A DNA stretch of 64,000 nt from Deltaproteobacteria bacterium. GTDB lineage: Bacteria; Myxococcota; Myxococcia; SLRQ01. The stretch's first letter is position 1, and every line of letters begins with the position of its first letter. Positions 3 to 18,400 of this stretch are shown piece by piece. Below the pieces are notes generated by a model, which searched no databases, was not told the origin of the DNA, and saw only the letters and a list, made by a program, of their open reading frames with translations. A program made the position numbers and the translations under genes. The stretch covers positions 62,001 to 126,000 of the forward strand of contig JARGFU010000005.1 of the NCBI GenBank assembly GCA_029210625.1, in the 5' to 3' direction.

Positions 3-1433
3 CTCGGCGCCGGGGCGATGGGGCAGGTCTACCGGGCGATCGACGCCCTCACCGGCGAGACGGTCGCGGTGAAGATCCTGGCCCCCTCCTCCCTGCGGGG
101 CGCGGGCGGCGCCGAGGATCGCTTCTACCGCGAGGCGCGCATCGCCCAGACCATCGACGACCCTGGCCTGGTGCGGGTCCGCCACGCCCAGCCGGAGGAG
201 GGCATCCTGGTGATGGAGTTCCTCCCCGGAGGCACCCTCGCCGATCGCCTCCGCGGCGGGCGCCACCTCCCCTGGCCCGTCGTGGTCCGCCTCGGGGTGG
301 AGGCCGCGCGAGCCCTGGCCGCGGCCCACCGGCGGGGCGTGCTCCACCGGGACGTGAAGCCCGCCAACCTGCTCTTCGACGCCCTCGGCTCGGTGCACCT
401 CGGCGACTTCGGCGCGGCGCACCTCGTCTCCTTCCAGCAGACCGGCACCGGCTACCTCCTGGGGACGCTCGCCTTCATGGCCCCCGAGCAGCTGGAGGCG
501 GCGGCGCTGGACGGGCGCACCGACCTCTACGCCCTGGCCGTCACCCTCTACCGGGCGGCCACCGGCCACCTGCCCTTTCCCGGGCCGCAGGTGGCGGCGC
601 AGCAGCGCGCCGGCGCCCGGCCGCCCTCCACGCTGCAGCCGCAGCTGGAGGGGCAGGCCATCGACGCCTTCTTCGAGCGGGCCCTGGCGCACGATCGCGC
701 CGACCGCTTCGAGAGCGGCGAGGCCTTCGCCCGGGCGCTCGGCGCCCTCGCCGAGCTCGGGGGCGGCGCCGAGGCGGCCCCGGCCCCCACGCCCGCGGGA
801 GCTCCGGCAGAGGACTCCGCGCGCCCGGGGCCGCGCTTCGACTTCGAGACGGCGCTCGGTCAGCGGGTCCACCTGGCGCGCGACGCCCGCCTCGGCCGGC
901 GGGTGGTGGTGGAGACCCTCCCCGGGGACATCTCGCCCGCGACCCTGGCCCGGCTGCGCGAGCTGGCCGCGGCGGGGAACCCTCACCTGCAGCCCCTCCT
1001 CGATCTCCTCCCGGAGGAGAGCCTGGCCATCTACCATCTCGTCGAGGGGCTGACCCTCGAGGAGGAGCTCTCGCGGCCGGGCGGGGCTCCGGGCCGGGAC
1101 CGGCGGCTGCGCCTCGCCGCGGACGTGGCCCGCGCGCTGCGGGACCACCCGGGTCCCTTGCGCCCGGGGCGGATCCGCATCGTCGGGGGTCGCGCGATCC
1201 TCCTGCTGGCGGGCATCGAGGCCCTCCACGCGGGGGCGGAGCCGCCCGCCGACGCCCGCCCGGCGGTGGCCCGGGTGGAGCGCTGGCTCGCGCTCGGCGC
1301 GGACCCGGGGGAGCTCTCCCCCGAGGTGGCCGCCGGGCACCTGGCCGCGCTCCGGGAGCCCGACGCCCCCGAGGCGCCGGCCGAGGCCGAGGCGCTCTCA
1401 CGATGGCTCGACGCGGGGCGGGCCGGAGGGTAA
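3..1433 (+). CDS. Serine/threonine protein kinase with pseudokinase-like C-terminal half (5' end outside window)
   Basis: Hanks-type kinase that phosphorylates Ser/Thr on target proteins. The window opens inside the glycine loop: the first complete codons read LGAGAMGQVY, so the true start lies upstream. Counting from the loop Met, the ATP-binding Lys is residue 19 (AVKIL), the catalytic loop HRDVKPANLL is at about 110, DFG is at 130-132 and APE at 155-157. All key residues for an active kinase are present. No membrane segment is visible. After an Ala/Pro-rich linker (about 250-272), residues 273-410 look like a second kinase fold (ALGQRVHLARDARLGRRV, then LVEGLTLEEEL) with no HRD or DFG, so probably a pseudokinase; this part is inference. 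It overlaps or abuts the MshEN gene downstream and heads an apparent four-gene operon. Confidence 0.93.
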   Translation, partial: LGAGAMGQVYRAIDALTGETVAVKILAPSSLRGAGGAEDRFYREARIAQTIDDPGLVRVRHAQPEEGILVMEFLPGGTLADRLRGGRHLPWPVVVRLGVEAARALAAAHRRGVLHRDVKPANLLFDALGSVHLGDFGAAHLVSFQQTGTGYLLGTLAFMAPEQLEAAALDGRTDLYALAVTLYRAATGHLPFPGPQVAAQQRAGARPPSTLQPQLEGQAIDAFFERALAHDRADRFESGEAFARALGALAELGGGAEAAPAPTPAGAPAEDSARPGPRFDFETALGQRVHLARDARLGRRVVVETLPGDISPATLARLRELAAAGNPHLQPLLDLLPEESLAIYHLVEGLTLEEELSRPGGAPGRDRRLRLAADVARALRDHPGPLRPGRIRIVGGRAILLLAGIEALHAGAEPPADARPAVARVERWLALGADPGELSPEVAAGHLAALREPDAPEAPAEAEALSRWLDAGRAGG

Positions 1434-2731
1434 ATCCCGGACTCTTGGTCGACCGAGTGCAAGTCGAGGCGCGCTACGCGCTGCGGGAGAAGTTCGAGGC
1501 CCGGCTGCGAGCCGCGCTGGTGCGGGACGGTCACGTCTCGCCGGCCCGGATGAAGGAGGCCCTCGACCGCCAGGTCGTGCACGGCGCTCACCTCGCCACC
1601 AACCTGTGGGAGCTGGGCTTCGTCGAGGGCAAGGTGCTCACCCGCGTCTCCTGCGAGCTGCTGGGCATCACGGCCGTCGCCCCGCAGGTGATCCTCCTGG
1701 CCAAGGGCGAGATCTTCCGCCTCCTGCCGGTGCACTTCATCCAGCAGCACCAGATCCTGCCCTTCTTCGTCGAGGGCCGGACCCTCCACGTCGCCATGGC
1801 CGAGCCCTGGGACCTGCCCACCGTCGAGCGGGCCGCCCACCACTGCGGCCTCGCCGTCCGGCAGCACTTCCTGGGTGAGGTCCCCATGGCCCGGGTGCTC
1901 CACCGGGTCCTCGGCCTGCCGATCTCGGCCCGCTTCGAGCTCGGCCGCCGCCTCTTCCAGCAGGCGCGCCGCCCCGAGGGCGCCCCCACCGGGCCGCAGG
2001 GCGATCTGATCGACGAGTCGGAGTTCAACGCCCTCTACGCCAGCCACACGGCGACGCCGCTCCTGGCGGTGCCGCCGGTCGCGCCGCTGCCCCCGGAGCC
2101 CGAGCTCTCCTTCGACGTCGATCTCGAGCTCGACGCGCTGGACGAGCTCGACCTCGACGAGAGCGGGGTCGGGCTCGACGAGCCGATCCTCGAGCTCAAG
2201 CCGGAGGACATGCTCCCCGTCGAGGCGGACGTCTCCCTGGTGCCCATCGAGGACCTCGCCGAGGCCACCGCCCTCCTGGAGGCCGCCACCTCCCGCCGCC
2301 AGGTGGGCGAGGTCATGGTCCGCTTCTGCCTCTCGCGGGGCGAGCGGGTGGCGCTGCTGACCCTGGACGGGACCTTCTGGGCGGGCTGGACCGGCACCGG
2401 CGTCGGGGTCGACGTCCGGGCGCTGGAGTCGCTGATGGTGCCGGCGGAGGAGGGGACGGTCTTCGGCCTCGTCGCCTCGACCGGCGCCCACTTCCTGGGG
2501 CCCCTGCTGCCCCACCGGATCCACAAGCGCTTCCTGTCGGTCCTCGGTGAGGGGGAGCCCACCACGGTCGGCTTCTTCCCGGTCCGCTATCGCGGGCGCG
2601 TGGTCTTCGGCGTCTACCTGGACGGCGGTGGGGGGCGGACCGTATCGGTGGACATCGCCGAGATCCTGCTCCTGGCGCAGCGCGTGCCCGGAGCCCTGGA
2701 GAAACTGGTGCAGAGGAGACTCGAGAGATGA
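1403..2731 (+). CDS. MshEN (GspE N-terminal)-domain protein with C-terminal GAF-like region
   Basis: Residues about 25-150 resemble the N-terminal domain of type II secretion/pilus ATPases (MshEN/GSPII_E_N): AALVRDGHVSPARMKEALDRQ, then LATNLWELGFVEGKVL and LLPVHFIQQHQILPFFVEG. No Walker A ATPase follows, so this is a stand-alone regulatory module. Some MshEN domains bind cyclic di-GMP; whether this one does cannot be told by eye. A long acidic segment (about 200-280) links to a C-terminal region (about 290-442) whose alternating strands look GAF-like. The start is uncertain: ATG 1403 overlaps the kinase by 31 bases, while TTG 1445 and GTG 1457 in the same frame would remove the overlap. The stop overlaps the next start (ATGA). 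Its place behind a Ser/Thr kinase suggests a signalling role, possibly as substrate or partner. Confidence 0.8.
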   Translation: MARRGAGRRVNPGLLVDRVQVEARYALREKFEARLRAALVRDGHVSPARMKEALDRQVVHGAHLATNLWELGFVEGKVLTRVSCELLGITAVAPQVILLAKGEIFRLLPVHFIQQHQILPFFVEGRTLHVAMAEPWDLPTVERAAHHCGLAVRQHFLGEVPMARVLHRVLGLPISARFELGRRLFQQARRPEGAPTGPQGDLIDESEFNALYASHTATPLLAVPPVAPLPPEPELSFDVDLELDALDELDLDESGVGLDEPILELKPEDMLPVEADVSLVPIEDLAEATALLEAATSRRQVGEVMVRFCLSRGERVALLTLDGTFWAGWTGTGVGVDVRALESLMVPAEEGTVFGLVASTGAHFLGPLLPHRIHKRFLSVLGEGEPTTVGFFPVRYRGRVVFGVYLDGGGGRTVSVDIAEILLLAQRVPGALEKLVQRRLER

Positions 2732-3447
2732 GCAGCGAGGCACAGACGGCAGTCATCGTGGGGGTCGGACCGGGGCTGGGCACGGCGCTGGCCCGCCGCC
2801 TGGCGGAAGAGGAGATGAAGCTCGCCCTGGTCGCGCGCTCCAAGGACCGCATCTCCAAGCTCGCCGAGGAGCTCGACTTCATCGCCAGCGAGGCCACCGC
2901 CTACGTCGCGGACGCGACGAAGGAGAGCGACGTCCGCAACCTCTTCGAGGCGGTCAGCGAGGACCTCGGCCTGCCCGACCTCGTCATCTTCAACGCGGGG
3001 GCGAGCCAGCGGCGCAGCATCCTCGAGGTGGGCACCAGCGACCTCGAGGATCAGTGGCGGCAGAACTGCCTCGGCGGCTTCCTCGTCGGGCGCGAGGCCC
3101 TGCGGATGATGGTGCCCCGCGGCGAGGGCACGCTCCTCTTCTCCGGCTCCACCGGCTCGGTGAGCGCCGCGGCGGGCTTCGCCGGCTTCTCGGTGGGCAA
3201 GTTCGGCCTGCGCGCCCTCGCCCAGTCCATGGCGCGCGAGGTCGGCCCCCTCGGGGTGCACGTCGGGCACATCGTCATCGACGGCGAGATCCTCTCCGAG
3301 CGCAACCGCCAGGCCCTGGTCGATCGCTCGCCCGACGAGTTCCTCACCCCCGAGGCGACCGCCGAGGCCTTCCTCCAGCTGCACCGGCAGAAGCGCAGCG
3401 CCTGGAGCTTCGAGATGGATCTGCGCCCCTGGAAGGAGCGCTTCTAG
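2728..3447 (+). CDS. Atypical short-chain dehydrogenase/reductase lacking the catalytic Tyr
   Basis: A 239-residue Rossmann-fold protein of classical SDR size. The nucleotide-binding motif is GVGPGLG (residues about 11-17) instead of TGxxxGxG, followed by FNAGA in place of NNAG. The Ser is present (LLFSGSTGSVS), but the YxxxK motif reads FSVGK, so Phe replaces the catalytic Tyr while Lys is kept. This is the signature of the SDR subgroup described as classical SDR_c10, which lacks the active-site Tyr. The protein probably binds NAD(P), but its reaction, if any, is unknown. The ATG lies in the ATGA overlap with the upstream stop, and the TAG stop touches the GTG start of the esterase, so the genes are probably translationally coupled. 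Confidence 0.88.
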   Translation: MSSEAQTAVIVGVGPGLGTALARRLAEEEMKLALVARSKDRISKLAEELDFIASEATAYVADATKESDVRNLFEAVSEDLGLPDLVIFNAGASQRRSILEVGTSDLEDQWRQNCLGGFLVGREALRMMVPRGEGTLLFSGSTGSVSAAAGFAGFSVGKFGLRALAQSMAREVGPLGVHVGHIVIDGEILSERNRQALVDRSPDEFLTPEATAEAFLQLHRQKRSAWSFEMDLRPWKERF

Positions 3448-5564
3448 TGGTGCGACGCCTGTCGACCCTCCTCGTCCTCTCCCTGCTCGGACTCGCGGCC
3501 TGCGGTGAAGGCGGCGGCGGCGGCGGAGGGGGCCCCGACGGGGGGAGCGACGGCGGCAGCCGCACCTACCAGTACCGGGCCCTGGCGGGGGTCTCGATGG
3601 GGGCCATCGGCACCGGCCTCCTGGGGACCCGGGAGCCCGGCGTCTTCGACGCCCTCGGCCCCCTCGGGGGCAGCCTCGATCTGCGCTACTTCCTCCACTA
3701 CTTCGAGGACCACCCCCTCTCGGGCTTCTGCACCTACGAGGACACCCTCGCGATCCTCCAGGCGGCCGGGGGCGACCCCGAGGCCCTGAACGACATCGCG
3801 GCCATCGAGGCCTGCGCGGTGCGCGCCCCGGCCACCGAGCGCTTCGAGCACGCGATGGACTTCAACCACTGGTGGTACGACGACAACGGCGGCACCTTCG
3901 ACCGCTCGTCCTACATCGACCTGCTCGAGGACGTCTCCCAGGCGCTGGGCAACCCCGCCTTCCACAACCCCGAGAACCCCTTCTTCCCGCCGGGGGTGGA
4001 CGAGAGCGCGACCTGCGCCGACCCCATCGTCTTCCCCGGCACCGACCACGGCGGCGACGCACCGGTCTACAACGACCGCTTCAACCCCGAGGGGCGCTTC
4101 GACGTCATCACCTTCTGCGACGGCGAGGAGCCCATCGTCACCTGCGAGCAGACCGGGCAGGTCGTGGACTTCTGCGCGGGAGTGGATCCCGACACCTTCT
4201 GCGGCGCGGACGGGCCGGCGGTGCAGCTCCCCAAGAACCGCCTCAAGGCGCAGTACCCCGAGGTCTACTACCGGGAGAAGGGCAGCTTCGATCCCTGCCG
4301 CCCGCACAGCGAGCGGCTGCGGGTGGTGCTCGCCGTGGACTACGACGGCGACGGCGTCCGCGACTACGGCGAGCCGGTGATCGTCAACGGCCGCGAGCGC
4401 TGGGAGGACACCGGCGCCGACGGCTGCCCCTCCACCGAGGAGGACGGCGCGGGCGGCTGCACCACGGCCGCCGAGAGCCCCCACGATCCGGTGACCAACC
4501 CCGACCCCAACGGCGACGATCACGACTGGGAGAGGAACGCGCTGGGCACCGAGGGAGACTGGGTCTGGCAGGAGGGCGAGCCCTTCACCGACGCGGGCCT
4601 CGACGGCGTGGCCGGCACCGGCGACCACGGCGAGGGCAACGGCCGCTACGATCTCTCCGACGGCGCCGCGCGCTGGCTCACGGTCGGGCCCCGCAGCCAG
4701 CTCGAGCGCTGGAGCGACGAGGAGCTGGCGAACACCGACTTCTGGTTCGATGGGGGCATCCGCGACATCTTCAACCTCGGGGTGAGCGCGGCGCAGACCT
4801 ACGGGCACGTCGCCGCCCGCGACCCGCAGAGCCTCTTCATCCAGAACTTCCCCGAGGTGCCCACCTACGACGACGTGCCGGTGGACCCCTTCGACTTCCG
4901 GGAGGTCGACTGGGCGCGGATCCCCGGCAAGGTGCTCTTCCTCTACGGCGACCCCGACGCCACCGACGCGCAGTGGCGGGACGGCGACGGCGCCCACGTG
5001 GGGACGGTCAAGCAGGTCCTCGACCGCATGAACCTCCTCTTCGCCTGGCTCTCCGAGCGCTTCCCGGAAGGGGACGACTCCGGCGACGACTTCGGCTCCT
5101 ACTCCGAGCTCGTCCTGGACGAGAGCTACTACTCCGAGGCGCTCGGCTCCGACCGCGTCTACTCCCGGGCCCTGCCGCCGGGCTACTTCGATCCGGCCAA
5201 CGCCGAGCGCAGCTACCCGGTGGTCTACTTCCTCCACGGCTACGGGCAGGACCCCACCGGGATGAGCGGCGCCAACGTCGTCCTGACCGGCTACATGGCC
5301 GAGGCCCTCCTCGAGAAGATGATCGTCGTCTACGTCGACGGCCGCTGCTGCTTCCGCAACGCGGCCGGCGAGCGCGACTGCCACGAGCCGGCGGACGCCC
5401 CCGACAAGGGGCCGGGGTGGGTGCGCGAGTGCCACCGGGGCTCCTTCTACGTCGACTCCCAGGGCAAGGCGGCGGGGGAGGGCACCGCCTACGGGGCCTC
5501 GCTCGACGAGCTCATGGCCCACATCGAGGCCACCTACCGGGTGAAGGCCCCCGCCACGCGCTGA
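3447..5564 (+). CDS. Secreted lipoprotein esterase with circularly permuted alpha/beta-hydrolase fold
   Basis: About 705 residues. The frame is open further upstream, but GTG 3447 (or GTG 3450) directly overlaps the SDR stop and gives a lipoprotein signal (LSLLGLAACGEG, lipobox LAAC) with a Gly-rich linker. The mature N-terminus begins YRALAGVSMGAIG, the nucleophile-elbow GxSxG motif of esterase D/Fes-type hydrolases (PF00756). The part that normally precedes it lies at the C-terminus: YPVVYFLHGYGQDP (oxyanion strand), KMIVVYVDG and LMAHIEATYRVKAPATR, after which the protein stops. The family order is therefore rotated. The middle (about 150-470) holds Asp/Gly-rich loops such as DYDGDGVRDYGEP that may bind calcium. 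The catalytic acid and His could not be assigned. Likely role: surface or periplasmic ester hydrolysis; substrate unknown. Confidence 0.85.
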   Translation: MVRRLSTLLVLSLLGLAACGEGGGGGGGGPDGGSDGGSRTYQYRALAGVSMGAIGTGLLGTREPGVFDALGPLGGSLDLRYFLHYFEDHPLSGFCTYEDTLAILQAAGGDPEALNDIAAIEACAVRAPATERFEHAMDFNHWWYDDNGGTFDRSSYIDLLEDVSQALGNPAFHNPENPFFPPGVDESATCADPIVFPGTDHGGDAPVYNDRFNPEGRFDVITFCDGEEPIVTCEQTGQVVDFCAGVDPDTFCGADGPAVQLPKNRLKAQYPEVYYREKGSFDPCRPHSERLRVVLAVDYDGDGVRDYGEPVIVNGRERWEDTGADGCPSTEEDGAGGCTTAAESPHDPVTNPDPNGDDHDWERNALGTEGDWVWQEGEPFTDAGLDGVAGTGDHGEGNGRYDLSDGAARWLTVGPRSQLERWSDEELANTDFWFDGGIRDIFNLGVSAAQTYGHVAARDPQSLFIQNFPEVPTYDDVPVDPFDFREVDWARIPGKVLFLYGDPDATDAQWRDGDGAHVGTVKQVLDRMNLLFAWLSERFPEGDDSGDDFGSYSELVLDESYYSEALGSDRVYSRALPPGYFDPANAERSYPVVYFLHGYGQDPTGMSGANVVLTGYMAEALLEKMIVVYVDGRCCFRNAAGERDCHEPADAPDKGPGWVRECHRGSFYVDSQGKAAGEGTAYGASLDELMAHIEATYRVKAPATR

Positions 5565-5626: not shown

Positions 5627-6121
5627 ATGACCGATCGGGAAGCCGTCGCGAGGATGAAGCTCGCGAAGCTGGACGCAGCCACGCTGGTCCGACAGGACCC
5701 TCTGCTCGAGCGCTCACACCTCCTGCAGGCGCTGGGGGAGGCGGCGGAGGCCGTCCTCGCCCGGGCGGGCCTGCGCCGCTATCCCGGCGGGGCGACGATC
5801 TACGGCGAGCACTCCTCGCCGGACCGGATCTACCTGCTGGCCCGGGGGGAGGTCGTCCTGCTGAGCTCGGGCGGCGCCGACGCCACGCCCCTGGTCACCC
5901 TCCACCCCGGAGACTGCTTCGGCACCGGGGCGGCCCTGGAGCCCCCCGCCCGCGCCGTCACCGTGCGGGCGGTCGGGACGGCCGATCTGGTGGAGATCCC
6001 GGCCGAGCCCCTCCGGGAGCTGGCCCGCAACGACCCGACCTTCTCGAGCTTCCTCCAGCAGTGCCACGAGCGGCTGAAGGGGGCGAAGAGCGAGCTCGAT
6101 GACTTCCTGGACCGCTGGTAG
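5627..6121 (+). CDS. Cyclic-nucleotide-binding-domain protein (stand-alone, Crp-like effector domain)
   Basis: A 164-residue cytoplasmic protein. Residues about 30-140 form one CNBD/cupin-type beta-roll: RRYPGGATIYGEHSSPDRIY, LLARGEVVLLSS, LHPGDCFGTGAAL, VTVRAVGTADLVEIPAEPL. The phosphate-binding cassette position lacks the clear Gly-Glu...Arg set of Crp, so ligand binding is uncertain. There is no helix-turn-helix after it, only a short C-terminal helix (QQCHERLKGAKSELDDFLDRW region), so it is not a Crp-type transcription factor by itself. It may act as a sensor subunit. The zinc-ribbon gene follows 12 bases later with its own SD, suggesting co-transcription. Confidence 0.82.
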   Translation: MTDREAVARMKLAKLDAATLVRQDPLLERSHLLQALGEAAEAVLARAGLRRYPGGATIYGEHSSPDRIYLLARGEVVLLSSGGADATPLVTLHPGDCFGTGAALEPPARAVTVRAVGTADLVEIPAEPLRELARNDPTFSSFLQQCHERLKGAKSELDDFLDRW

Positions 6122-6133
6122 GAGGCGAAGACC

Positions 6134-6337
6134 ATGGGAATGGACCAACACGGCTACGACGACGACGAGAAGGAAGCGGCGAAGCGCTACAACGAGTTCG
6201 AGTGCCCGGACTGTGACGCCAACAACCCCGTGGATGATGGCTTCACCGACGGCTCCGAGGTCCGCTGCTACTACTGCGGCATGGCCTACCAGGTGCAGGT
6301 CACCGAGGCCGGCAAGCTGAAGTACAAGGCGGTCTAA
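6134..6337 (+). CDS. Small zinc-ribbon protein
   Basis: A 67-residue protein with two CxxC knuckles, CPDC and CYYC, 22 residues apart, which together should bind one zinc ion (ECPDCDANNPVDDGF then VRCYYCGMAYQVQV). The N-terminus is acidic and charged (YDDDEKEAAKRYNE). The ATG at 6134 has a strong SD (AGGAGG at 6120-6125). It probably shares an mRNA with the CNBD gene just upstream. No specific function is recognisable; such ribbons usually mediate protein or nucleic-acid contacts. Confidence 0.8.
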   Translation: MGMDQHGYDDDEKEAAKRYNEFECPDCDANNPVDDGFTDGSEVRCYYCGMAYQVQVTEAGKLKYKAV

Positions 6338-6387
6338 GTATTCGAAAAAACGGGCAGGAAGGAAGTGGCTCGACCCCCGACCTCCCC

Positions 6388-6393
6388 TATAAT
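6388..6393 (+). promoter_or_regulatory. -10 box (TATAAT) upstream of the giant DUF11 protein
   Basis: A perfect TATAAT lies in the 130-base gap between the zinc-ribbon gene and the giant gene. Transcription would start near 6400, which makes the in-frame TTG at 6400 an unlikely start and favours ATG 6469. No clear -35 is visible at the usual spacing. Confidence 0.45.
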
Positions 6394-6468
6394 CGATGAT
6401 TGCCCGTCCGGTGGGGCCGCGCACGAGGGGTGCGCGGGAACACGACCACCCGGCGGCCGAAGATCATC

Positions 6469-9400
6469 ATGAGGCAGACCTTGGCGATCCCGCGAGGGAG
6501 CAGAGGCCGCGTGCCGGACCCATGGTCCGGAGGCGGCTCCTCCCTCCTCCTGCTCGTCCTGTTCCTGGCGCTCCTCGCCTGGCCCTCCCGGGCCGCGGCG
6601 GTGGTGACCGGGACCGCGCCGAGCCTCTACCAGAGCTTCACCGTCCAGGGCTCGGCCCAGACGACGGGCAACACCCTGATGATCCTCGCCCTCGAGGATC
6701 CCCGGGTGAACGACACGCTGCTGGATCCCTCCTTCACCTCCGCGAACCTCTCCGGGGTGCCCATCAACGCCACCATCGAGGGGGCCTACGTCTTCTACTC
6801 CGGCCGCACCGACGCGGTCGCCGACGATCAGTTCGACTTCTACACCCCCGATGGCGTGATGCGGCCCCTGGTGGCCGGCCTCTGCCGCAACCTCACCTAC
6901 GGCGGCCAGAGCTTCTTCTACTGCCGCCGGGACGTCACCTCGCAGGTGCGCGCCGTCTCCGCCGCCCGGGGCGGTGACGTCAACGGCGTCTACAACGTCA
7001 ACGGCGTCCAGGCCCGGGTGGGCGTGCGCGGCAGCCTCTCCAACGGCTGCGCCTTCACCGATCCCGGCTGCCAGGCCGCCTACGCCGGGTGGTCGCTGGT
7101 GGTGGTCTGGTCCAGCGAGACGGCCCCGGGGGTGCGCAACCTCCTCCTCTACGACGGCTTCTACGGCTGCGACGAGACCACGACCTCGGGGATCTCGGCG
7201 CCGATCCCGCTCTCGGGCTTCACCGTCGGCGATCCCGCCGGCGGCGAGATCGTCTTCTTCGCCCTGGAGGGCGACCCCCACCTCGGCAGCCCCCCGGGGG
7301 GCATCGAGTGGGGCGACTGGATGCAGTTCAACCCGCAGAGCGGCAGCGGGGTGCTCCTCCAGTCGGCCTCCAATCCACCGCGCAACCTCTTCAACAGCAC
7401 GGTGCAGCAGGCGGGCGTGCCCTTCAACGGGGTGGACCTCGACGCCATCGACCTGGGGCCCACCGGGCTGAACCTGCTCTCGCCCGGCGACACCAGCGCG
7501 AGCATCGTCCCCGGCTCGGGGGACGGCGTCCTCGACGGCGGCCAGCAGGGGGAGCTCTTCATCCTCGGCTGGGTGCTCCTGGGCATCGACACCATCGCCC
7601 CCTCCCTGGGGCAGGCCTCGACCAAGCGGGTGGACAAGACCACCGCGGCCTCCGGCGAGACCCTCACCTACACCCTGACCCTCACCAACTCCGGCAACGA
7701 CTTGGCGCCGGGGGTGATCGTGCAGGACGCCCCGCCGGCGGGCACGACCTACATCCCCGGCACCACCACCCTCGACGGGCTGCCCGTGCCCGACAGCGGC
7801 AGCAACAGCGCCCTGGTCTCGGGGCTGAACATCGGGGACCTCGACTACCGGGTCGGCACCACCACCACCAAGACCGTCTCCTTCCAGGTGTCGATCGACG
7901 CGGGCACCTCCGACGGCGCCTCGATCTGCAACCAGGCGACCGTCGACTCCAGCCGCTCGGTGCTCGTCACCCTCACCACCAGCCCCTGCACCACCGTCCA
8001 GGCTCCTGAGCTGCGCGACCCGCAGGTGCTGGAGGTCACCGATCTGAACGGCGGGGTGGTCCAGCCCGGGGATCGCCTGCGCTACCGGGTCCGCCTCTAC
8101 AACGACGGCAACCAGCCCGCCCAGCAGGTCCGCTACGTCCAGCCCCTGCCCGCCCACGTGAAGGACCTGGTGGTCCTGGCGGTGCCGCCGGGCGCCACCG
8201 ACGGCTCCGCCCTGCCGCAGATCGACGTCTCCAACATCACGGTGCCCGGGAGCTTCTCGGTCGAGCTCCTCTTCGAGGTGACGATCCTCGACGAGGCCGA
8301 GCTGATCGCCGCCGGCGTGCCCTCCTCGGGCATCGACGGGCTGCTGATCTCCACCCAGGGTGAGCTGCAGGCCCCCTGGCTGACCGCGCCCCTGCTCACC
8401 GACGACCCCTCCACCGCCGCCACTCCGGACCCCACGCGGGTGCGCCTCTCCTACGCGGTGGATCTGACGAGCTCGGCCAAGGCCGGGGTCGACGACAACG
8501 GCGCCCCCCTCCAGGGCCGCGACACCGTCACCTACACCCTCACCCTGCGCAACACCGGGAACCGGGCGGCCACCGCCCGCATCGTGGACAACCTCCCGGC
8601 CGAGGTGGAGGCCTGCACGATCCTCTCCTCGCCCGTGCCCGCCACCTGCAGCGCCAGTGGGGGGACCAACGGGACCGGACAGCTCGTCGCCAACGGCATC
8701 CCCGTCTCGGCGGGGGGCACCACCCTCATCAGCTTCCAGGTGCGGGTGCAGGAGGACGCCATCGACGGCGCGCTGGTGACCAACGTCGCCTCGCTGACCG
8801 CCCTCGAGACCACCGGCACCCTCACCCTGAGCTCCACGGGCCTGCGGATCCTCAACCGCGCCCACCTCTCGGCCTCCACCAAGATCGTGGTGGACGCCAA
8901 CGGCGCCCCGGTGGAGCCGGGGGATCGGCTCGACTACCAGCTGGCCATCCGCAACTCGGGCAACCGGGCGGCGACCGGCGTGACCGTCTCCGACCTGATC
9001 GACACCAACCTCTCCATCCTCTCGGTGGGGCAGGGCGGGCTGATCTCGGGCGGCCAGGTCACCTGGAACGCCATCAGCACCCCGGCGCTCGCGCGGATCG
9101 AGCCGGCCCAGGAGGTGCTCCTCGACCTCGCCGTGCAGGTGAGCACCCCGCTGCCCAACGGCACCTTGATCTCCAACCAGGGCGTCATCACGGCCCCGGA
9201 GATCACCGGGCCGGCGCTCACCGACGATCCCACCACCCTCGAGGTCGGCGATCCCACCCGGGTGCGGGTCCAGAGCCTGCCCAACTTCGTCTTCGAGAAG
9301 CGGGTGATCGATCTCGGCGGGGGCCCCGTGCGCCCCGGCGATCGGCTCCGCTACGAGCTGATCCTGCGCAACACGGGCCCCGGCGACGCCACCTCGATCG

Positions 9401-12400
9401 CCGTGAGCGACGCCCTGCCGCCGGAGCTCTCGGTGGTCCGGATCGAGAACGGCGGCACCCAGGTGGGCGGCTCGCTGGTCTGGACGATCCCCTCGATGGG
9501 GGTCTCGCCCACCGGTGACACCCTCCTGGCCTTCGAGGCGGAGCTCGCCAGCCCGCTGGCGAACGGCACGATCGTCTCCAACCAGGCCGACCTGGTCGCC
9601 GCCGAGCTCTCCTCCGCGATCCTCTCCGACGATCCGGACACGCCCCTCCCGGCGGATCCGACGCAGGTGGTGGTCTCCTCGCAGGCCGACCTCTCCGCCT
9701 CGACCAAGGCGGTGGTGGATCTCAACGGCGGCGCGCACCTGCCCGGCGACGATCTGCGCTACACCCTCGTGCTGACCAACACCGGCGACGCGCCGGCCCG
9801 GAACGTGGTGGTCAGCGATCCGATCGCCGCCTGCCTCACCTCGGTGACGCCAGGGGAGGGCGGCACCCTCGCCGGGGGCCAGCTCACCTGGAGCTCGCCG
9901 CTCACGCCGACCCTCGCCCGCATCGATCCGGGCGCGGACGTGGTCCTCACCTTCGACGCCCGGCTCGCCGCGAGCCTGCCCGACGGCACGCCCTGCGCCA
10001 ACCAGGCCACGCTCCTCTCGAGCGATCTGCCGGGCCCCGTGCTCACCGACGATCCCTCCACCACGGCCGTCGACGACCCGACCGTGATCCTCGTCGAGTC
10101 CCGCCCCTCCCTGGAGGAGAGCGAGAAGCAGGTCGAGCTCGTGGCCGACCGCAACGGCGACGGCGCCTTCAGCCCCGGGGACGGGATCCGCTACACGCTG
10201 CGGATCCGGAACACCGGCTCCGAGGACGCGACCAACGTCCGGGTGCGCGATCCGATCCCCGCAGAGCTCTCCAACGTCGTGGCCACGCCCCCCGGCACCG
10301 TGGTGGGCACGGAGCTGCGCTGGACCTTCGCCACCCTCGCCGCCGGGGCGACCCGCACCCTCACCCTCGAGGCGGACCTCGCCTCGCCCCTCGACGACGG
10401 CGCGGTGATCTCGAACCAGGCCTTCATCGGCCGCACCGGCCTCACCACCGAGGTGGCCACCGACGATCCGGCCACCCCCGAGGTCGACGACGCGACGGCC
10501 TTCACGGTCGTCTCCACCCCGGATCTCTCGGGCTTCACGCTCGTGGCGATCGATCCGAACGGCGCGCCCTTGAGGCCGGGGGACGAGCTGCGCTACCGGC
10601 TGACCCTGGTGAACGAGGGCACGGCGCTGGCCCGGGACGTCTCCGTCACCCTGCCGCTCGACCCCAGCACCAGCTTCCTCTCGGCGAGCGCCGGGGGCGT
10701 CTACGATGCGAGCGCCCACGCCGTCTCCTGGGTCATCCCCCTGATCGGCATCGGCGCCGATCTGGCGCGGATCCGGACGGTGAGGACCCTGCTGGGCTCG
10801 CCCCTCGACAACGGCCTGCCCATCACCGCCCAGGCCACCGCCACGGCCGCCGGCCTGCCGGCGTCGGTCCTCTCCGACGATCCGGCGACGGCCGCCCTCG
10901 ACGATCCCACGGTCCGCTTCGTGGTGAGCGGCGCCGACCTCCACGCGAGCACCAAGACGGTCGCCGACGCCAACGGCGGCGACGTGCGGCCCGGCGACGT
11001 CCTGGCCTGGGCCATCCAGGTGCGCAACGACGGCGACGCCGTCGCCCGCAACGTCACCGTGGACGACGCCTTCGACGGCGCGCTCACCGGCCTCTCCCCG
11101 CAGCAGGGTGGGGTGGCCGCCGGCCAGAGCGTCCACTGGGACGCCTCCACGACCCCCGCGCTGGCGGCGCTGGCCCCCGGCGAGAGCCAGACCCTGGTGG
11201 TGCTCTCGGTCGTGGACTCCCCGCAGGACGACGGCACCCTCGTCGCCAACCAGGCCCTGATCTCCGCCGACGGCCTGGTCGCGCCCGTGCCCACCGACGA
11301 TCCCGCGACCGCCGCGGTGGACGATCCCACCACGGTGGTGGTCGTGGCCGCGCCGGAGCTCTCCGCGACCACCAAGACCTTCACCGCCACCGGCGGCCTG
11401 CCCGTGCGCCCCGGCGCCGTGGTGACCTGGACCCTCTCCACCCGCAACCAGGGGGACGCCTGGGCCCGGAGCGCGACCTTGCGCGACGCGCTCGATCCCT
11501 CCCTGACCTTCGTCTCGGCCTCCGACGGCGGGGTCTACGATCCGGGGAGCCACACGGTGAGCTGGAGCCTGGGCGATCTGCCGCCCGGCCCGATCTTCGA
11601 GCGCACCCTCCTCACCCGGGTGGTGACGCCCCTGGACCACGGCACGGTGGTCTCCAACCAGGGCCTGCTCGAGAGCCCGAGCCTGGCGGCCAGCCAGCCC
11701 ACCGACGATCCCGCCACGGCGGTCGTGGGCGACCCCACCACCTTCACGGTGGAGAGCGCGCCGGATCTCTCGTCGAGCACCAAGGAGGTCGTGGACCGCA
11801 ACGGCGGCGTCGTCGAGCCCGGTGACCTCCTCGACTACCGCATCTCCCTGATCAACAGCGGCGACATGCTGGCCCCCGGCGTGGTCACCCTCGACGACCT
11901 CGACCCGCGCCTCGAGGTGGTCTTCACCCAGGACGGCGGCCTCCACGACGCGGGCGCCGGCCGCATCACCTGGCCGGCGGTCGATCTCTCTCCCTCCGAT
12001 CAGCCGGTCGTCCGGCGCTTCACGGCGCGGGTGCCCCCGCTGACCGCCAGCGGCACGGTCATCGCCAACCAGGCCCTCGTCGCCGGGGCCGGGCAGTCGG
12101 TCCCCACCGACGATCCCAGCACCCCCGAGCCGGCCGACCCCACCGAGGTGGTGGTTGTCTCCGCCCCCGACTTCACCCTCACCGAGAAGACGGTGGTCGA
12201 CGACGACGGCGGGCTGCCCCTGCCCGGCGATCGCCTCACCTACACCCTGCGGGTGAAGAACACCGGCAACACCCACGGCACGGCCGTGCGGGTGCTCGAT
12301 CCCATCGACGCCCTCCTCACCGACGTGCAGCCGGGGCAGGGCGGCAGCTTCGATGGCAGCGCCATCCTCTGGGACCAGACCACCACGCCCGCCCTGGCGC

Positions 12401-15400
12401 GGGTCGCCCCGGGCACCAGCGGGGACGTGCTCCTCACCTTCACCGCCCGCATCGCCGCGGAGGCCCGGGACGGGGATCGGATCGCCAACCAGGCCCGGAT
12501 CGAGAACGCCGAGATCGGCGGCGCCGTGGTCTCGGACGATCCGACGACCCCCGCGCCCTCGGATCCCACCGTCCTCCAGCTGGCCCTGCCGGACCTCGGC
12601 TCGGCGACGATGACCGTCGAGGATCTCGACGGCGGGGACGTGGAGCCGGGCGACCGCCTGCGCTGGACCCTGACCCTCCAGAACCTCGGCAGCCACCCGG
12701 CCGAGGACGTGGTCGTCCGCGACGCCCTCGACCCCACGCTGCTGGTCGATCCGCAGGTCCTCGGGGGCTCCCTGGAGGGCGACGAGGCCGTCTGGAGCGT
12801 CGGCACCCTCGAGCCCGGGCAGCGCGTCGAGCTCTTCCTCGAGACCACCGTGGCGGCCCTGCTGGCCAACGGGACCGAGATCCCCAACCAGGCCACGATC
12901 ACCCTCGGTGACCTGCCCACCCTCGTCCTCACCGACGATCCCGCCACCCCGGAGGAGGACGATCCCACCACCGTGGTCGTGGTCTCGGCGCCCGACCTGA
13001 TCGTGCACAAGACCGTCGAGGACCTCACCGGCGACCTGGTCGTGCCGGGCGACAGCCTCCGCTACACCCTCACCCTGGAGAACGTCGGGAACACCCTCGC
13101 CACCCAGGTGCTGGTGGAGGACACCCTGCCGGCCCTCGTGGCGAGCTGGAGCGAGAGCCCCGCCGCCGTCACCGTCGATCGCCGGCTGACCTGGACGCCC
13201 ACCGAGGTGCCGGCCCTCGCGGCCGTCGCCCCGGGCGAACCCGTGGTCCTCACGATCGACGTGGTCCTGACCTCCCCGCTGCCCGACGGAACCCTCGTCG
13301 CCAACCAGGCCCGGGTCTTCCACGCCGAGCTCCCCGCGGCCGTGCCCAGCGACGATCCCACGACGCCCGCGCCCTTCGACGCCACGGCGGTGCGGGTCTT
13401 CTCCGCCCCGCGCTTCGACCACTCCGAGAAGACGGTGGTCGATCTGAACGGCGGCCTGATCGAGCCGGGGGACCTGCTCGAGTACACCCTCGTCATCCTC
13501 AACGACGGCACCGAGGACGCCCTGGGCTCGGTGCTGCAGGATCCCGTCCCGGCGAGCACCCGCTACGTGCCGGGCACCACCCGCCTCAACGACGCGCCGG
13601 TGGACGATCCCGCCGGCGGCGGCTCGCCCCTGGTGCTCGGGCTCTCCCTGAGCTCGGCCCGCCCGGGCACCCCGGCCGGCGTGATGCTGGTCTCCGACGG
13701 CGCGGCGCCGGACGACGAGGCCGCGGTCGTCACCTTCCGGGTGCAGGTCGAGGCGGGCGTCCTCGGCGGCACCGAGATCGCGAACCAGGGGCGGATCGCC
13801 TCCCTGCAGACCGAGGCCGTCGGCACCGACGATCCCGCCACGCCCACGCCGGGCGACGCCACCGTGGTGGTCGTGGGGCGGGCCATCCACCTCGGGGACG
13901 CCGGCAAGACCTGGAGCTTCACCCGCGACGAGGAGACCCCGGGCGTGGTCGAGCCCGGCGACCGGATCGCCTTCGAGCTCTCCGTGCCGAACCGCGGCAC
14001 CTCCACGGCCCACGACGTCGAGATCCGGGATCCCCTGCCCGCGGGGACCCGCTACCTCACCGGCAGCCTCACCCTCGACGGCCGGCCCCTGACCGACGCC
14101 GCCGACGGCGACCCGGGCCAGGTGGCCCTGGGCGCCGTGCGGGTGGTCGTCCCCTCGATCGATCCGCACGCCACCGCGCTGGTGCGCTTCGAGGTCGAGA
14201 TCGAGAGCGACGCCGGCCCCACGGTGGTCAACCAGGGTACGGTCTCGGCCCTCGACGAGACCGGCGTCCGGGTGGAGGTCCTCACCGACGCCGATCCCTC
14301 GGTGCCGGGCGACCAGGCCACCGTCATCCCCATCGGCGACGCGCCGGTGCGCGACCTCTCGACCTCCCTGAAGGCCGTGGTCGATCTCGACGGCGGCGTG
14401 GTGGAGCGGGGCGACCTGCTCCAGTACCAGCTCGTGGTCCGCAACACCGGCAACGTCCCGGTCGAGGAGATCTCGCTCTCCGATCCTCTCCCGCGCCACC
14501 TGGTCTACGTCTCCCACGAGACGCCGAGCGGCAGCAGCTCGCGCTTCGAGAACCCACCGGCGGGCACCGGCCAGGGGATGCTCCACTTCTCCCTCGGGGC
14601 GCCGCTCCCCGCCGGGGAGAGCTGGCAGGGCACCTTCCTGGTCCGCATCACCCACGACGCGCCGGACGGCGCGATCCTCTCCAACCTCGCCCTCCTCGAG
14701 GCGCGTGATCTGCCCTCCCGGGAGCTGGGCCCGGCGACCGTGGTGGTGGGCGCCGCGCCGGGGACCGGGGGCTACCTCGGCCGGATCTTCCTCGACGGCG
14801 ACCGCGACGGCGCGCTCGGCGAGGGGGAGGGCGGCCTGACCGGCTACAACATCAGCGCCGTCTCTCCGGCCAGCGGCGAGATCGTGCGCTCGGCGGTGAG
14901 CGACGCGCGGGGCGACTTCGCCCTCGTCGGCCTCCCGGTGGGGCCCTGGATCCTGCGGGTGAGCTCGGCCAGCGGCACCACCTTCGTGCAGGAAGCGGTG
15001 GCCGCGGCGCGGGCCGACGCCCTCGAGGTCCACGACTGCGCCATCGATCCCTCGGGCGTGGTCTACCGCGGGGACGACGGCAGCGGCGTGCCCGACGCCC
15101 GGGTCTGGCTGCTCTACGACCAGAGCCGGGTGGGGCAGGCCCCGCTGCCCTGCGACGAGGACCAGCGCCTGGTCACCCTCGAGACCGATCCCAACCTCGG
15201 CGCCAGCGAGACCCACCCCCTGCCGCGCCCGGTGGGCACCGCCTGCCTCCTCCCCGGCCAGCAGGGCCAGACCACCCCCCGGGGTGAGTCCGCGGGCTTC
15301 TACCGCTTCGACGTACCCCAGGCCGATCCGGCCATGGCCTACCAGCTCCAGGTGGTCCCGCCGGCGCCGCAGCTCGCCTTCCCCTCGGTGGTGCGCCCGG

Positions 15401-18400
15401 CGGCGCCCGGCTTCGCGCCTCCCGGCGCCGTCGTGCCCGACCCCCGCCCGAACCTCGAGGGCGACACGACCTGGTACCAGCACTTCTCCATCGGCGTGCC
15501 CGAGGACGAGGTCACCCACAACCACGTGCCCCTCGACCCGGTGCGGGATCTGCTGCAGCTGACCAAGGTCGCGGCCCGCGGCACCGCGACGGTGGGCGAG
15601 CTGGTCGCCTACACCCTGACCCTGAAGAACCGCTCCGGCGCCGACCTGCGCAGCACCGGCGCCTCCGGGGATCTCGGCGGCACCGGGGTGCGGATCCAGG
15701 ATCTGATCCCGAGCGGGATGAAGTACGTCGCCGGGACGGCGACCGCCTCCCGGCTGCGGGTGGCGCCGGACGGTGGCCTGGTGCGGGCCTGCCCCCGGGT
15801 GGGGGAGGACGCCCTCGGCTGTCCCAGCGAGCGGGCCGAGCCCGCCCCCCTGATGGACACCCAGCAGGCGGTGGGCGGGGCCCTCTCCTTCGGCCCCTAC
15901 GACCTGCTGGCCGGTGAGCAGCTCGAGCTCCGCTACGTGCTCGCGGTGGGCGCCCGCGCCAAGCCCGGCGCCGCCACCAACCTCGCCCGGGCCACCCTGG
16001 ACGACGTCGAGGTCGGCGAGGCCGAGGCCTCGATCCACATCGTCGCCGATCCCCTCTTCGACGAGGGCACGGTGATCGGCAAGGTCTTCTGCGACGACAA
16101 CGAGGACGGGCGGCAGCAGCCCGGCGAGCGGGGGTTGATCGGAGCGCGCGTCTACTCGGACACGGGGATGGCCGCCACCTCGGACCGCAGCGGCAAGCTG
16201 CACTTCAACCGGCTGCCGCCGGGGATGCGGCTCTTCAAGCTCGATCCCTCCAGCCTGCCGCCGGCCAGCGGCCCGGTGGGCCCCCCGGGGAAGCCCCTCT
16301 TCCTGACCCGCGGCCTCGACGCGGTCCTCTCCTTCCCGGTGCGCTGCGCGCTGGCCGAGATGAAGCCCACCCAGCTGGGCGTGATGCGGCCCAGGGCGCC
16401 GCCGGCCCTGGCGGTCGTGGCGACCTCCAGCCCCCTCGACCTGCAGGTGGGGGAGGCCGAGGTCGTGATCCCGCGCCTCGATCTGCGCGTCACCGCCGAG
16501 GGCGGTACGCCGCGCTTCGACGAGCCGGGCCTCCCGGTGGGCCTCGACCAGGGCGCGAAGGCCCAGCTCCACCTGCAGGCGAGGGGCACCCCCCGCCGCT
16601 GGCGGGTGGCCTTCGCCCGGGCGCCGGTCGCGCCCGCCCTCCCCGAGGGCACCTCCGCCGAGGAGGCCGCACGCCTCCTCGGAGGCCCCGAGAGCTGGCA
16701 GCGCCTGGCCGTGCTGACGGGGGAGGGCGCGCCGCCCGCGAGCCTGGCCCTGCCCGCCGACCTGCCCCGCGGGGAGCCCCTCGTGGTCTGGGCCGGCGTC
16801 GAGGGCGAGCCGGGCCTCGCCTCCCGCAGCGCGGTGCAGGTCTTCGCGCTGGACTGGATCCCGCCGCCCTTCACGCCGGTGAAGCTCACCCTGATGGGCG
16901 AGCTCTTCCCCAAGCAGGGCGCGAAGCCGACCGCGGTCTTCCGCAAGGTCTTCGAGCCGGCCCTGAAGGCCCTGCAGGACTACCCCAGCTCGACCGTCGA
17001 GATCGCGGTCCACGTCGACGCCACCTACCGCAAGCGCGCCATGCCCCTCTCCCGGCAGCGGGCCGAGGCGATCAAGGGCTGGCTGGTCGAGAGCGGCATC
17101 GCCGCCGAGCGGATCGACGCCACCGGCAAGGGCTCGACCCGGCCGCTGGCGCCGAACATCGGCCAGCGCAACCAGCGCAAGAACCGCCGGGTCTGGGTGG
17201 CGGTGAGCGCGCCGGAGCCCGAGATCCCCGAGCTCCCCTCGATCACCCTCCCGGCCGGCTTCCAGGTCGGCGGCGCGGAGACGGCCCTCGACGGCATCGG
17301 CAACTTCGCCGACGTGGTCGAGGTCGCCCGCAACGGCCGGCTCTCCCTGAGCCTCGGCCTCGCCCGCGGCGAGCGCCTCGGCCTCCTGCGGCGCCTCGAC
17401 GCCGAGGGGCAGCCCCTCGCCCTGCCGGCCGACGATCCCGAGGCCGACGCCTTCTCGGCGGAGGCCCTGCGCCTCGCCGGCCTGCGCTGGGCGGCCAGCC
17501 CCGACACGGGTGAGGCGGCGACGACGGTGGCCGCGGCGGCCCCGGAGGCGAGCGAGGACGAGCCGGGCGTGCCGGCCTCCCTCGCGGGCGAAGACGAGGA
17601 GCCGGGCACCCCCGCCGCCCTCGCCGGGCCGGCGGCCCCCGCGGCGACCCCCACCGCGCCCGCCGCGGGCGCGGGCGCGGCCGTGGCGATGCGCCTCGAG
17701 CTGCCCCGCAGCGGCGGGACGCCCCTCCTCACCTGGGAGGGCGCGCGCCACGCGCTGCCTCTCGCCGCCGTCACCGGCCTGCGGGAGGACGAGGAGGGGC
17801 CGGTGAAGCTCGGCAAGGGCGGCCTGCCCCGCAAGCCGATCCCCTTCCTCACCCGGATGCCCGGGCAGCTGCGCGCCTCGGAGTGGGAGCTGTGGATCGA
17901 GGACACCGCCGGCCAGCGGGTCGGTCGGGTGGCCGGCACCGGCGCGCCGCCGCCGCGGATCCTCTGGGACGGCAAGGACGAGGCCGGCGCCCCGGCCCTG
18001 AAGCGGGGCGAGGGCTACCGCTTCCGCCTGCGGGTCCTCGACCAGCAGGGCAACGAGGGCAAGGGTCCCTGGGGCACCTTCGCCGTGGCGAACGTGGGCC
18101 TCTCCCGCACCCTCAACGGGCTCTTCGCGATCGGCTACAACATCGCGCCGGCCAAGCGCGCCCCGCTGCAGGCCTTCGCCCGTCGGGTGGAGGAGATGGG
18201 GCCCGGCACCCGGGTCACGGTGGTGGCCCACACCGACAACACCGGTGGCCCCGAGGCCGCCATGAGCCGCACCGACAAGCAGGCCGCGGCCGTGGCCCGC
18301 CTGCTGGCCTCCTACGGGATCCCGCCGGACCGCATCCGGCAGATCTTCAAGGGCGACACCCAGCCCCTCGCGCCGAACCTCTCCGCCCGGAACCGCGAGC

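What the first reader, a model, noticed from the sequence alone, without database searches (positions are those of the whole stretch)
3447..5564. Candidate natural circular permutation of an esterase D/Fes-type hydrolase
The nucleophile motif GVSMG starts the mature protein (YRALAGVSMGAIG), and the protein ends with HIEATYRVKAPATR. In PF00756 esterases that last segment directly precedes the nucleophile elbow. The oxyanion segment YPVVYFLHGYGQDP also lies near the C-terminus. Joining the old ends would rebuild the usual order. About 300 residues of Asp/Gly-rich sequence lie between the halves. A tandem duplication followed by loss of the outer halves would explain it.
Basis: partly seen in the sequence, partly recalled or inferred. 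Interest (0 to 1): 0.7.

Follow-up and report, generated by a model that had tools for sequence, protein, structure and literature searches.

The report
Naturally reordered (circularly permuted) esterase family
This bacterial gene encodes a membrane-anchored esterase whose chain has been re-cut so that it begins just before the catalytic serine and ends where that piece used to start. The same rearranged enzyme is found across the phylum Myxococcota, so it is a real protein shape rather than a sequencing error.

Summary
Confirmed and extended. Window 3447-5564 (+) encodes a 705-aa lipoprotein whose alpha/beta-hydrolase order is rotated: beta5/nucleophile (Ser50), beta6, a ~356-aa cap, beta7 (Asp440), beta8 and His517, then beta1-beta4 with the oxyanion HGYG, then alphaB. 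Against the solved feruloyl esterase 7xrt, a family profile matches in swapped order, with the two chain ends abutting at 7xrt residue 144. Ordinary-order esterases from related genomes show the same swap and abutment. Re-joining the halves raises the PF00756 score in 3 of 3 proteins. AlphaFold2 on 77 homologues gives one confident fold (pLDDT 95.8, pTM 0.94). Foldseek's top hit is the Penicillium PHB depolymerase 2d80/2d81, a type-2 catalytic domain in which the oxyanion hole follows the triad (PMC2666664). All 77 non-redundant homologues keep the order, triad and an EF-hand-like loop. It is not a type-2 depolymerase by NCBIfam. It is a new family showing a known kind of permutation, probably of separate origin, with an undescribed acidic, probably Ca2+-binding cap. 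Substrate unknown. The proposed duplication-and-loss origin is untested.

The parts
3447..5564 (+). CDS of the circularly permuted esterase lipoprotein, 705 aa; GTG start overlaps the stop codon of the upstream SDR gene
   Evidence: homologues
3447..3503 (+). Signal peptide with lipobox LAAC (Cys19); followed by a Gly-rich linker (residues 20-38)
   Evidence: sequence; Cys19 aligned and invariant in 12 homologues; lipobox-like signal found by pattern in 54 of 77
3561..3668 (+). Permuted N-terminal piece: beta5, nucleophile elbow GVSMG (Ser50, codon 3594-3596), alphaC, beta6 (residues 39-74)
3669..4736 (+). Cap inserted between beta6 and beta7 (residues 75-430), acidic, Cys-rich
   Evidence: model strand positions; length range 252-382 in the family
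4338..4373 (+). EF-hand-like 12-residue loop in the cap, residues 298-309 (D-x-N/D-x-N/D-G-x-x-D-x-x-E)
   Evidence: pattern in 77 of 77; D298, D306, E309 invariant
4407..4442 (+). Second acidic loop, residues 321-332 (D321-x-G-x-D325-G ... E332)
4590..4634 (+). Third acidic loop, residues 382-396 (D382-x-G-x-D386-G ... D393 ... E396)
4737..5060 (+). beta7 with catalytic acid Asp440 (codon 4764-4766, motif GGIRD), beta8, His517 (codon 4995-4997, motif GxGxHxG), alphaF; residues 431-538
   Evidence: D440 and H517 invariant in 77 of 77; strand order; acid region aligned
5061..5111 (+). Linker (residues 539-555) joining the ancestral C-terminus (alphaF) to the ancestral N-terminus (beta1)
   Evidence: 14-40 residues long, among the least conserved stretches
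5112..5540 (+). Permuted C-terminal piece: beta1-beta4 with oxyanion motif HGYG (5235-5246) and alphaB, residues 556-698
   Evidence: PF00756 profile 1-76 at residues 563-646
2728..3447 (+). Upstream short-chain dehydrogenase gene, overlapping by 1 nt; not conserved next to relatives
   Evidence: PF00106; synteny test
5627..6121 (+). Downstream cyclic-nucleotide-binding-domain protein, a conserved neighbour in a subset of relatives
   Evidence: PF00027; same strand 0-87 nt downstream in 18 of the 77 loci examined, this one included

Best explanation
The gene encodes an exported, lipid-anchored serine esterase built on a circularly permuted CE1/PF00756-type alpha/beta-hydrolase fold. The chain now starts at beta5, just before the nucleophile elbow, and ends after alphaB. 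The ancestral ends are fused by a variable linker. The rotated parts rebuild one Ser50-His517-Asp440 active site, with the oxyanion loop HGYG supplied by the C-terminal piece. A ~350-residue cap with EF-hand-like, probably Ca2+-binding, loops sits between beta6 and beta7, where hydrolases usually carry lids, and probably shapes substrate access. It most likely hydrolyses an ester substrate outside the cytoplasm. Shown by computation: order, homology, single predicted fold, conservation of the triad and of the order. Inferred: catalysis, metal binding, localisation, substrate. Not shown: how the permutation arose.
For: The profile of 77 homologues hits 7xrt in pieces 461-545 to 24-106 (i-E 1.7e-10), 589-613 to 119-144 and 5-58 to 144-197 (i-E 1.5e-5), so the new ends abut at residue 144. 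Ordinary-order Myxococcaceae-type esterases L168-L170 show the same swap and abutment; L167 also aligns the Asp region. De-permuted PF00756 scores are 34.1 vs 28.6, 42.7 vs 36.6 and 33.9 vs 26.8 bits. The de-permuted core matches 7xrt in one piece across the junction (44.6 bits). AlphaFold2 pLDDT 95.8, pTM 0.94, strand order 5-6-7-8-1-2-3-4. Foldseek's top hits are 2d80/2d81, with 270-298 alignment columns against ~150-180 for ordinary CE1 enzymes. S50, D440, H517 and the EF-hand-like loop are present in 77 of 77. The order is kept throughout the relatives. The fusion linker varies from 14 to 40 residues.
Against: No solved structure or activity exists. Model coordinates could not be read, so the distances between termini and within the triad were not measured. 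Foldseek TM-scores are low (0.34-0.37 on the target), as expected when a sequential aligner meets a large insert or a permuted chain. The oxyanion His is Pro or Gly in 6 of 77 relatives. Substrate and Ca2+ binding are inferred from sequence.
Confidence: 0.93

Rival explanations
1. A divergent type-2 extracellular PHA depolymerase: the permutation was inherited from the known permuted family, and the protein degrades polyesters.
For: Same order (triad first, oxyanion last; PMC2666664). Foldseek's best hits are the P. funiculosum PHB depolymerase 2d80/2d81. A weak de-permuted match to PF10503 (13.7 bits, below the cut-off).
Against: NF050059 (e_dPHAscl_type2) does not match the own genome at E<=0.001, nor any of 12 members at E<=10. 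2d80 is absent from the profile search of PDB sequences at E<=0.1, while CE1 enzymes reach 1.7e-20. The 305-position type-2 model leaves no room for the ~350-aa acidic cap.
Confidence: 0.12
2. Two incomplete esterase halves, or a gene-fusion or assembly artefact, with the order produced by rearranged or misassembled DNA.
For: A single gene in a draft genome could be misjoined.
Against: 77 non-redundant sequences, the homologues 34-44% identical to the query, from many assemblies keep the order; one confident compact fold; no internal stops, triad intact.
Confidence: 0.01
3. A permuted but catalytically dead fold serving as a structural or Ca2+-binding surface lipoprotein.
For: The large acidic cap is strongly conserved; the oxyanion His is replaced in 6 of 77.
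Against: Ser, Asp and His are invariant in 77 of 77, as are several glycines around them, which is unusual for a dead enzyme.
Confidence: 0.05

Closest known systems
CE1 feruloyl / acetyl-xylan esterases (PF00756), e.g. BT_4077 (7xrt) and the XynZ feruloyl esterase domain (1jjf)
   Same: Best sequence relatives; same core, nucleophile and oxyanion segments, serine-hydrolase triad
   Different: Ordinary order, beta1 to alphaF; no ~350-residue acidic cap between beta6 and beta7
Extracellular dPHASCL depolymerases with type-2 catalytic domain (P. funiculosum PHB depolymerase 2d80/2d81; NCBIfam NF050059)
   Same: Triad first, oxyanion hole C-terminal to it; best Foldseek hits (PMC2666664)
   Different: No sequence match to the type-2 model; model length 305 against a 668-residue mature domain here, so no comparable cap
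Type-1 dPHASCL depolymerases (NCBIfam NF050058)
   Same: Weak matches to 11 of 12 members (best 1.5e-7)
   Different: Ordinary order; score of the window protein 21.9 bits against a curated cut-off of 150
Esterase D / S-formylglutathione hydrolase and Fes/IroE-type enzymes
   Same: Same superfamily; weak hits (3e4d, 3gff)
   Different: Scores much lower than CE1 enzymes; ordinary order

Membership tests
PF00756 (putative esterase) superfamily | Score over the curated cut-off (22 bits) | tested here: met
   28.6 bits native, 34.1 de-permuted; all 12 members of A1 match the family, best 3.1e-10
PF00756 (putative esterase) superfamily | Ordinary order: oxyanion segment, nucleophile, acid, His | tested here: not met
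   Rotated order in the alignments and in the model
alpha/beta-hydrolase with Ser-Asp-His triad | Conserved GxSxG Ser, acid after beta7, His after beta8 | tested here: met
   S50, D440, H517 invariant in 77 of 77, positioned after beta5, beta7 and beta8 in the model
alpha/beta-hydrolase with Ser-Asp-His triad | Triad atoms close enough to act in 3D | not testable with these tools
Type-2 dPHASCL depolymerase | Oxyanion hole C-terminal to the triad | tested here: met
   HGYG at 597-600, after His517
Type-2 dPHASCL depolymerase | Match to NCBIfam NF050059 over its 280-bit cut-off | tested here: not met
   No match in the own genome at E<=0.001; none in 12 members at E<=10
Type-2 dPHASCL depolymerase | Hydrolysis of short-chain-length PHA | not testable with these tools
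   No assay
Bacterial lipoprotein | Signal peptide with lipobox Cys | tested here: met
   LAAC, Cys19; invariant column in 12 homologues; lipobox-like signal found by a simple pattern in 54 of 77
EF-hand-like Ca2+-binding loops | D-x-D/N-x-D/N-x-x-x-D-x-x-E loop | tested here: met
   77 of 77
EF-hand-like Ca2+-binding loops | Binding of Ca2+ | not testable with these tools
   No metal-binding assay

The most novel reading that the evidence does not exclude
An independent natural circular permutation of the alpha/beta-hydrolase fold, cut at about the same place as in type-2 PHA depolymerases (between alphaB and beta5). It would have arisen once in Myxococcota from CE1-like esterases, been kept phylum-wide, and been coupled to a new Ca2+-binding cap and a lipid anchor at the new N-terminus.
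Probability: 0.6. Interest if true: 0.68.

Novelty: new variant of a known kind. Interest (0 to 1): 0.6.

Why it matters
Natural circular permutations of catalytic folds that are conserved over a whole phylum are uncommon. This one comes with many homologues and with ordinary-order relatives in related genomes, so its origin and its functional consequences can be studied. If it is independent of type-2 PHA depolymerases, about the same cut arose twice, which points to a structurally favoured break point. It also explains why profile searches see only fragments of this family and leave it as a poorly described 'putative esterase'.

Tried and rejected
The first translation used the wrong frame (3448). 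Searching genomes with the 12-row alignment A1 failed twice for technical reasons. A Pfam scan of all 77 members exceeded the size limit. Whole-sequence HMM scores of de-permuted versus native profiles against the highest-scoring PF00756 proteins of the class (L099-L128) did not separate the two orders: those targets are too distant and HMMER sums the pieces, so the order of the pieces on closer relatives was used instead. The long N-terminal extensions of Polyangia members were read for a retained second esterase half (an intermediate of duplication); none was seen in the nine proteins read, and Pfam reported no domain in the extension of the two scanned. No relatives in viral contigs; one fragment match (residues 556-632) in plasmids. 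Papers on a permuted CE1 esterase: none found.

Full report
WHAT IS THERE. The gene spans 3447-5564 on the + strand (705 aa). Its GTG start overlaps the last base of the stop codon of an SDR gene. The protein begins with a lipoprotein signal (LAAC, Cys19) and a Gly-rich linker, then runs straight into YRALAGVSMGAIG. The oxyanion segment YPVVYFLHGYG and the segment DELMAHIEATYRVK, which in PF00756 enzymes precedes the nucleophile elbow, are the last parts of the chain.

SEQUENCE TEST OF THE PERMUTATION. PF00756 matches residues 563-646 with its first 76 positions. phmmer against PDB sequences finds 7xrt (feruloyl esterase) in three pieces: 561-631 to 34-104, 686-702 to 127-143 and 42-74 to 145-177. 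A profile of 77 homologues gives the same pieces with i-E 1.7e-10 and 1.5e-5 for the two main ones, the chain ends abutting at 7xrt residue 144, plus a weak, non-significant match of the Asp region to 201-246. That is the signature of a circular permutation. Joining the C-terminal piece in front of the N-terminal piece raises PF00756 scores in 3 of 3 proteins (34.1 vs 28.6, 42.7 vs 36.6, 33.9 vs 26.8 bits). For the window protein this gives one continuous match over profile positions 1-153. The de-permuted core profile matches 7xrt across the junction in one piece of 44.6 bits.

ORDINARY-ORDER RELATIVES. Genomes of the same phylum contain ordinary esterases whose alignment to the permuted profile is swapped and abuts at one point: L169 (95-163, 183-201, 200-236), L168 (165-231, 235-269, 268-304), L170 (191-258, 263-297, 296-332), and L167, which also aligns the catalytic-acid region downstream. 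None of the six ordinary-type proteins fetched shows a match to the cap. As a control on the method, the NCBIfam model of the type-2 depolymerases matches several Myxococcota proteins in two pieces in swapped order (e.g. G010:C6, G013:C204).

STRUCTURE. AlphaFold2 with 77 sequences gives one compact model (pLDDT 95.8, pTM 0.94). With only 12 sequences it was 64.4 and 0.66. Element order in native numbering is: beta5 44-49, alphaC 51-60, beta6 69-73, cap 75-430, beta7 431-437, helix 444-458, beta8 495-500, alphaF 521-538, beta1 556-563, beta2 568-575, beta3 592-596, alphaA 610-618, beta4 626-630, alphaB 682-696. The strand names are my assignment from order and motifs. Foldseek's best two hits in the PDB are the Penicillium PHB depolymerase 2d80/2d81, aligned over 270-298 columns, while ordinary CE1 enzymes align over about 150-180 columns. 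That is what a shared permuted order predicts, although TM-scores are low and coordinates could not be inspected.

FAMILY. 111 candidate relatives were confirmed in genome contigs, of which the best 80 were returned. Their titles name Myxococcota or unresolved deltaproteobacterial/proteobacterial bins. In the phylum sample, 63 of 193 genomes have a match to the protein, a few of these being ordinary esterases that match only the oxyanion segment. Full-length ORFs run colinearly with the permuted query; 77 sequences, the query included, remain after redundancy removal. Ser50, Asp440 and His517 are invariant in 77 of 77, as is Gly598; the oxyanion His597 is present in 71. Polyangia members carry an extra N-terminal extension ahead of beta5; no second esterase half was seen in the ones read. 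The linker that joins the ancestral ends is 14-40 residues long and among the least conserved stretches, as expected for a fusion point.

CAP. The Asp/Gly-rich middle is an insertion between beta6 and beta7, the usual place for hydrolase lids (PMC11878206). It holds an EF-hand-like loop D298-x-N-x-N-G-x-x-D306-x-x-E309 in all 77 sequences and two further acidic loops (321-332, 382-396) with nearly invariant acidic positions, plus conserved cysteines. Ca2+ binding is an inference.

CONTEXT. In 18 of the 77 loci, this one included, a cyclic-nucleotide-binding-domain gene lies 0-87 nt downstream on the same strand. The upstream SDR is not a conserved neighbour. The link to function is unknown.

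COMPARISON WITH THE KNOWN. Type-2 catalytic domains of extracellular PHA depolymerases have the oxyanion hole C-terminal to the triad (PMC2666664). The description of 2d80 as a circularly permuted hydrolase (Hisano et al. 2006) is from my own knowledge of that paper, not read here. The present family has the same rearranged layout but is not a member by sequence: the type-2 model does not match it, whereas CE1 feruloyl esterases do strongly. A separate origin is therefore more likely than shared descent, but no tree was made.

VERDICT. A real, phylum-wide, naturally circularly permuted esterase family; a new variant of a known kind of rearrangement. Catalysis, Ca2+ binding, localisation and substrate are inferred. 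The duplication route remains a hypothesis without an intermediate. The identical or near-identical tandem copies seen in two genomes are whole permuted genes, not half-genes.

Noticed in passing
window 5627-6121 (+): A cyclic-nucleotide-binding-domain protein (PF00027, 164 aa, no other Pfam domain) lies 0-87 nt downstream of the permuted esterase in 18 of the 77 loci examined, this one included; the functional link is unknown.
   Followed up: partly
L016 4995-7244 and 8699-10948; L017 4661-6937 and 7239-9515: Tandem copies of the permuted esterase: identical over 2250 bases in L016 and 2268 of 2277 bases identical in L017 (recent duplication or an assembly repeat).
   Followed up: partly
L062, L065 and other Polyangia loci, residues before the nucleophile: Many Polyangia members carry an N-terminal extension of roughly 150-350 residues, beta-rich by eye, ahead of the permuted esterase; in the two scanned, Pfam finds no domain there.
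   Followed up: partly
window 6400-22365 (+) and 6334-22257 (-): A giant 5321-residue ORF with many repeated domains and a VAQP tandem repeat, overlapped on the other strand by an uninterrupted 5307-residue ORF, probably a GC-rich shadow frame.
   Followed up: no
window 1403-2731 (+): 442-aa protein with an MshEN domain (PF05157) directly upstream of the SDR gene, possibly in one transcription unit with the SDR and the esterase.
   Followed up: no
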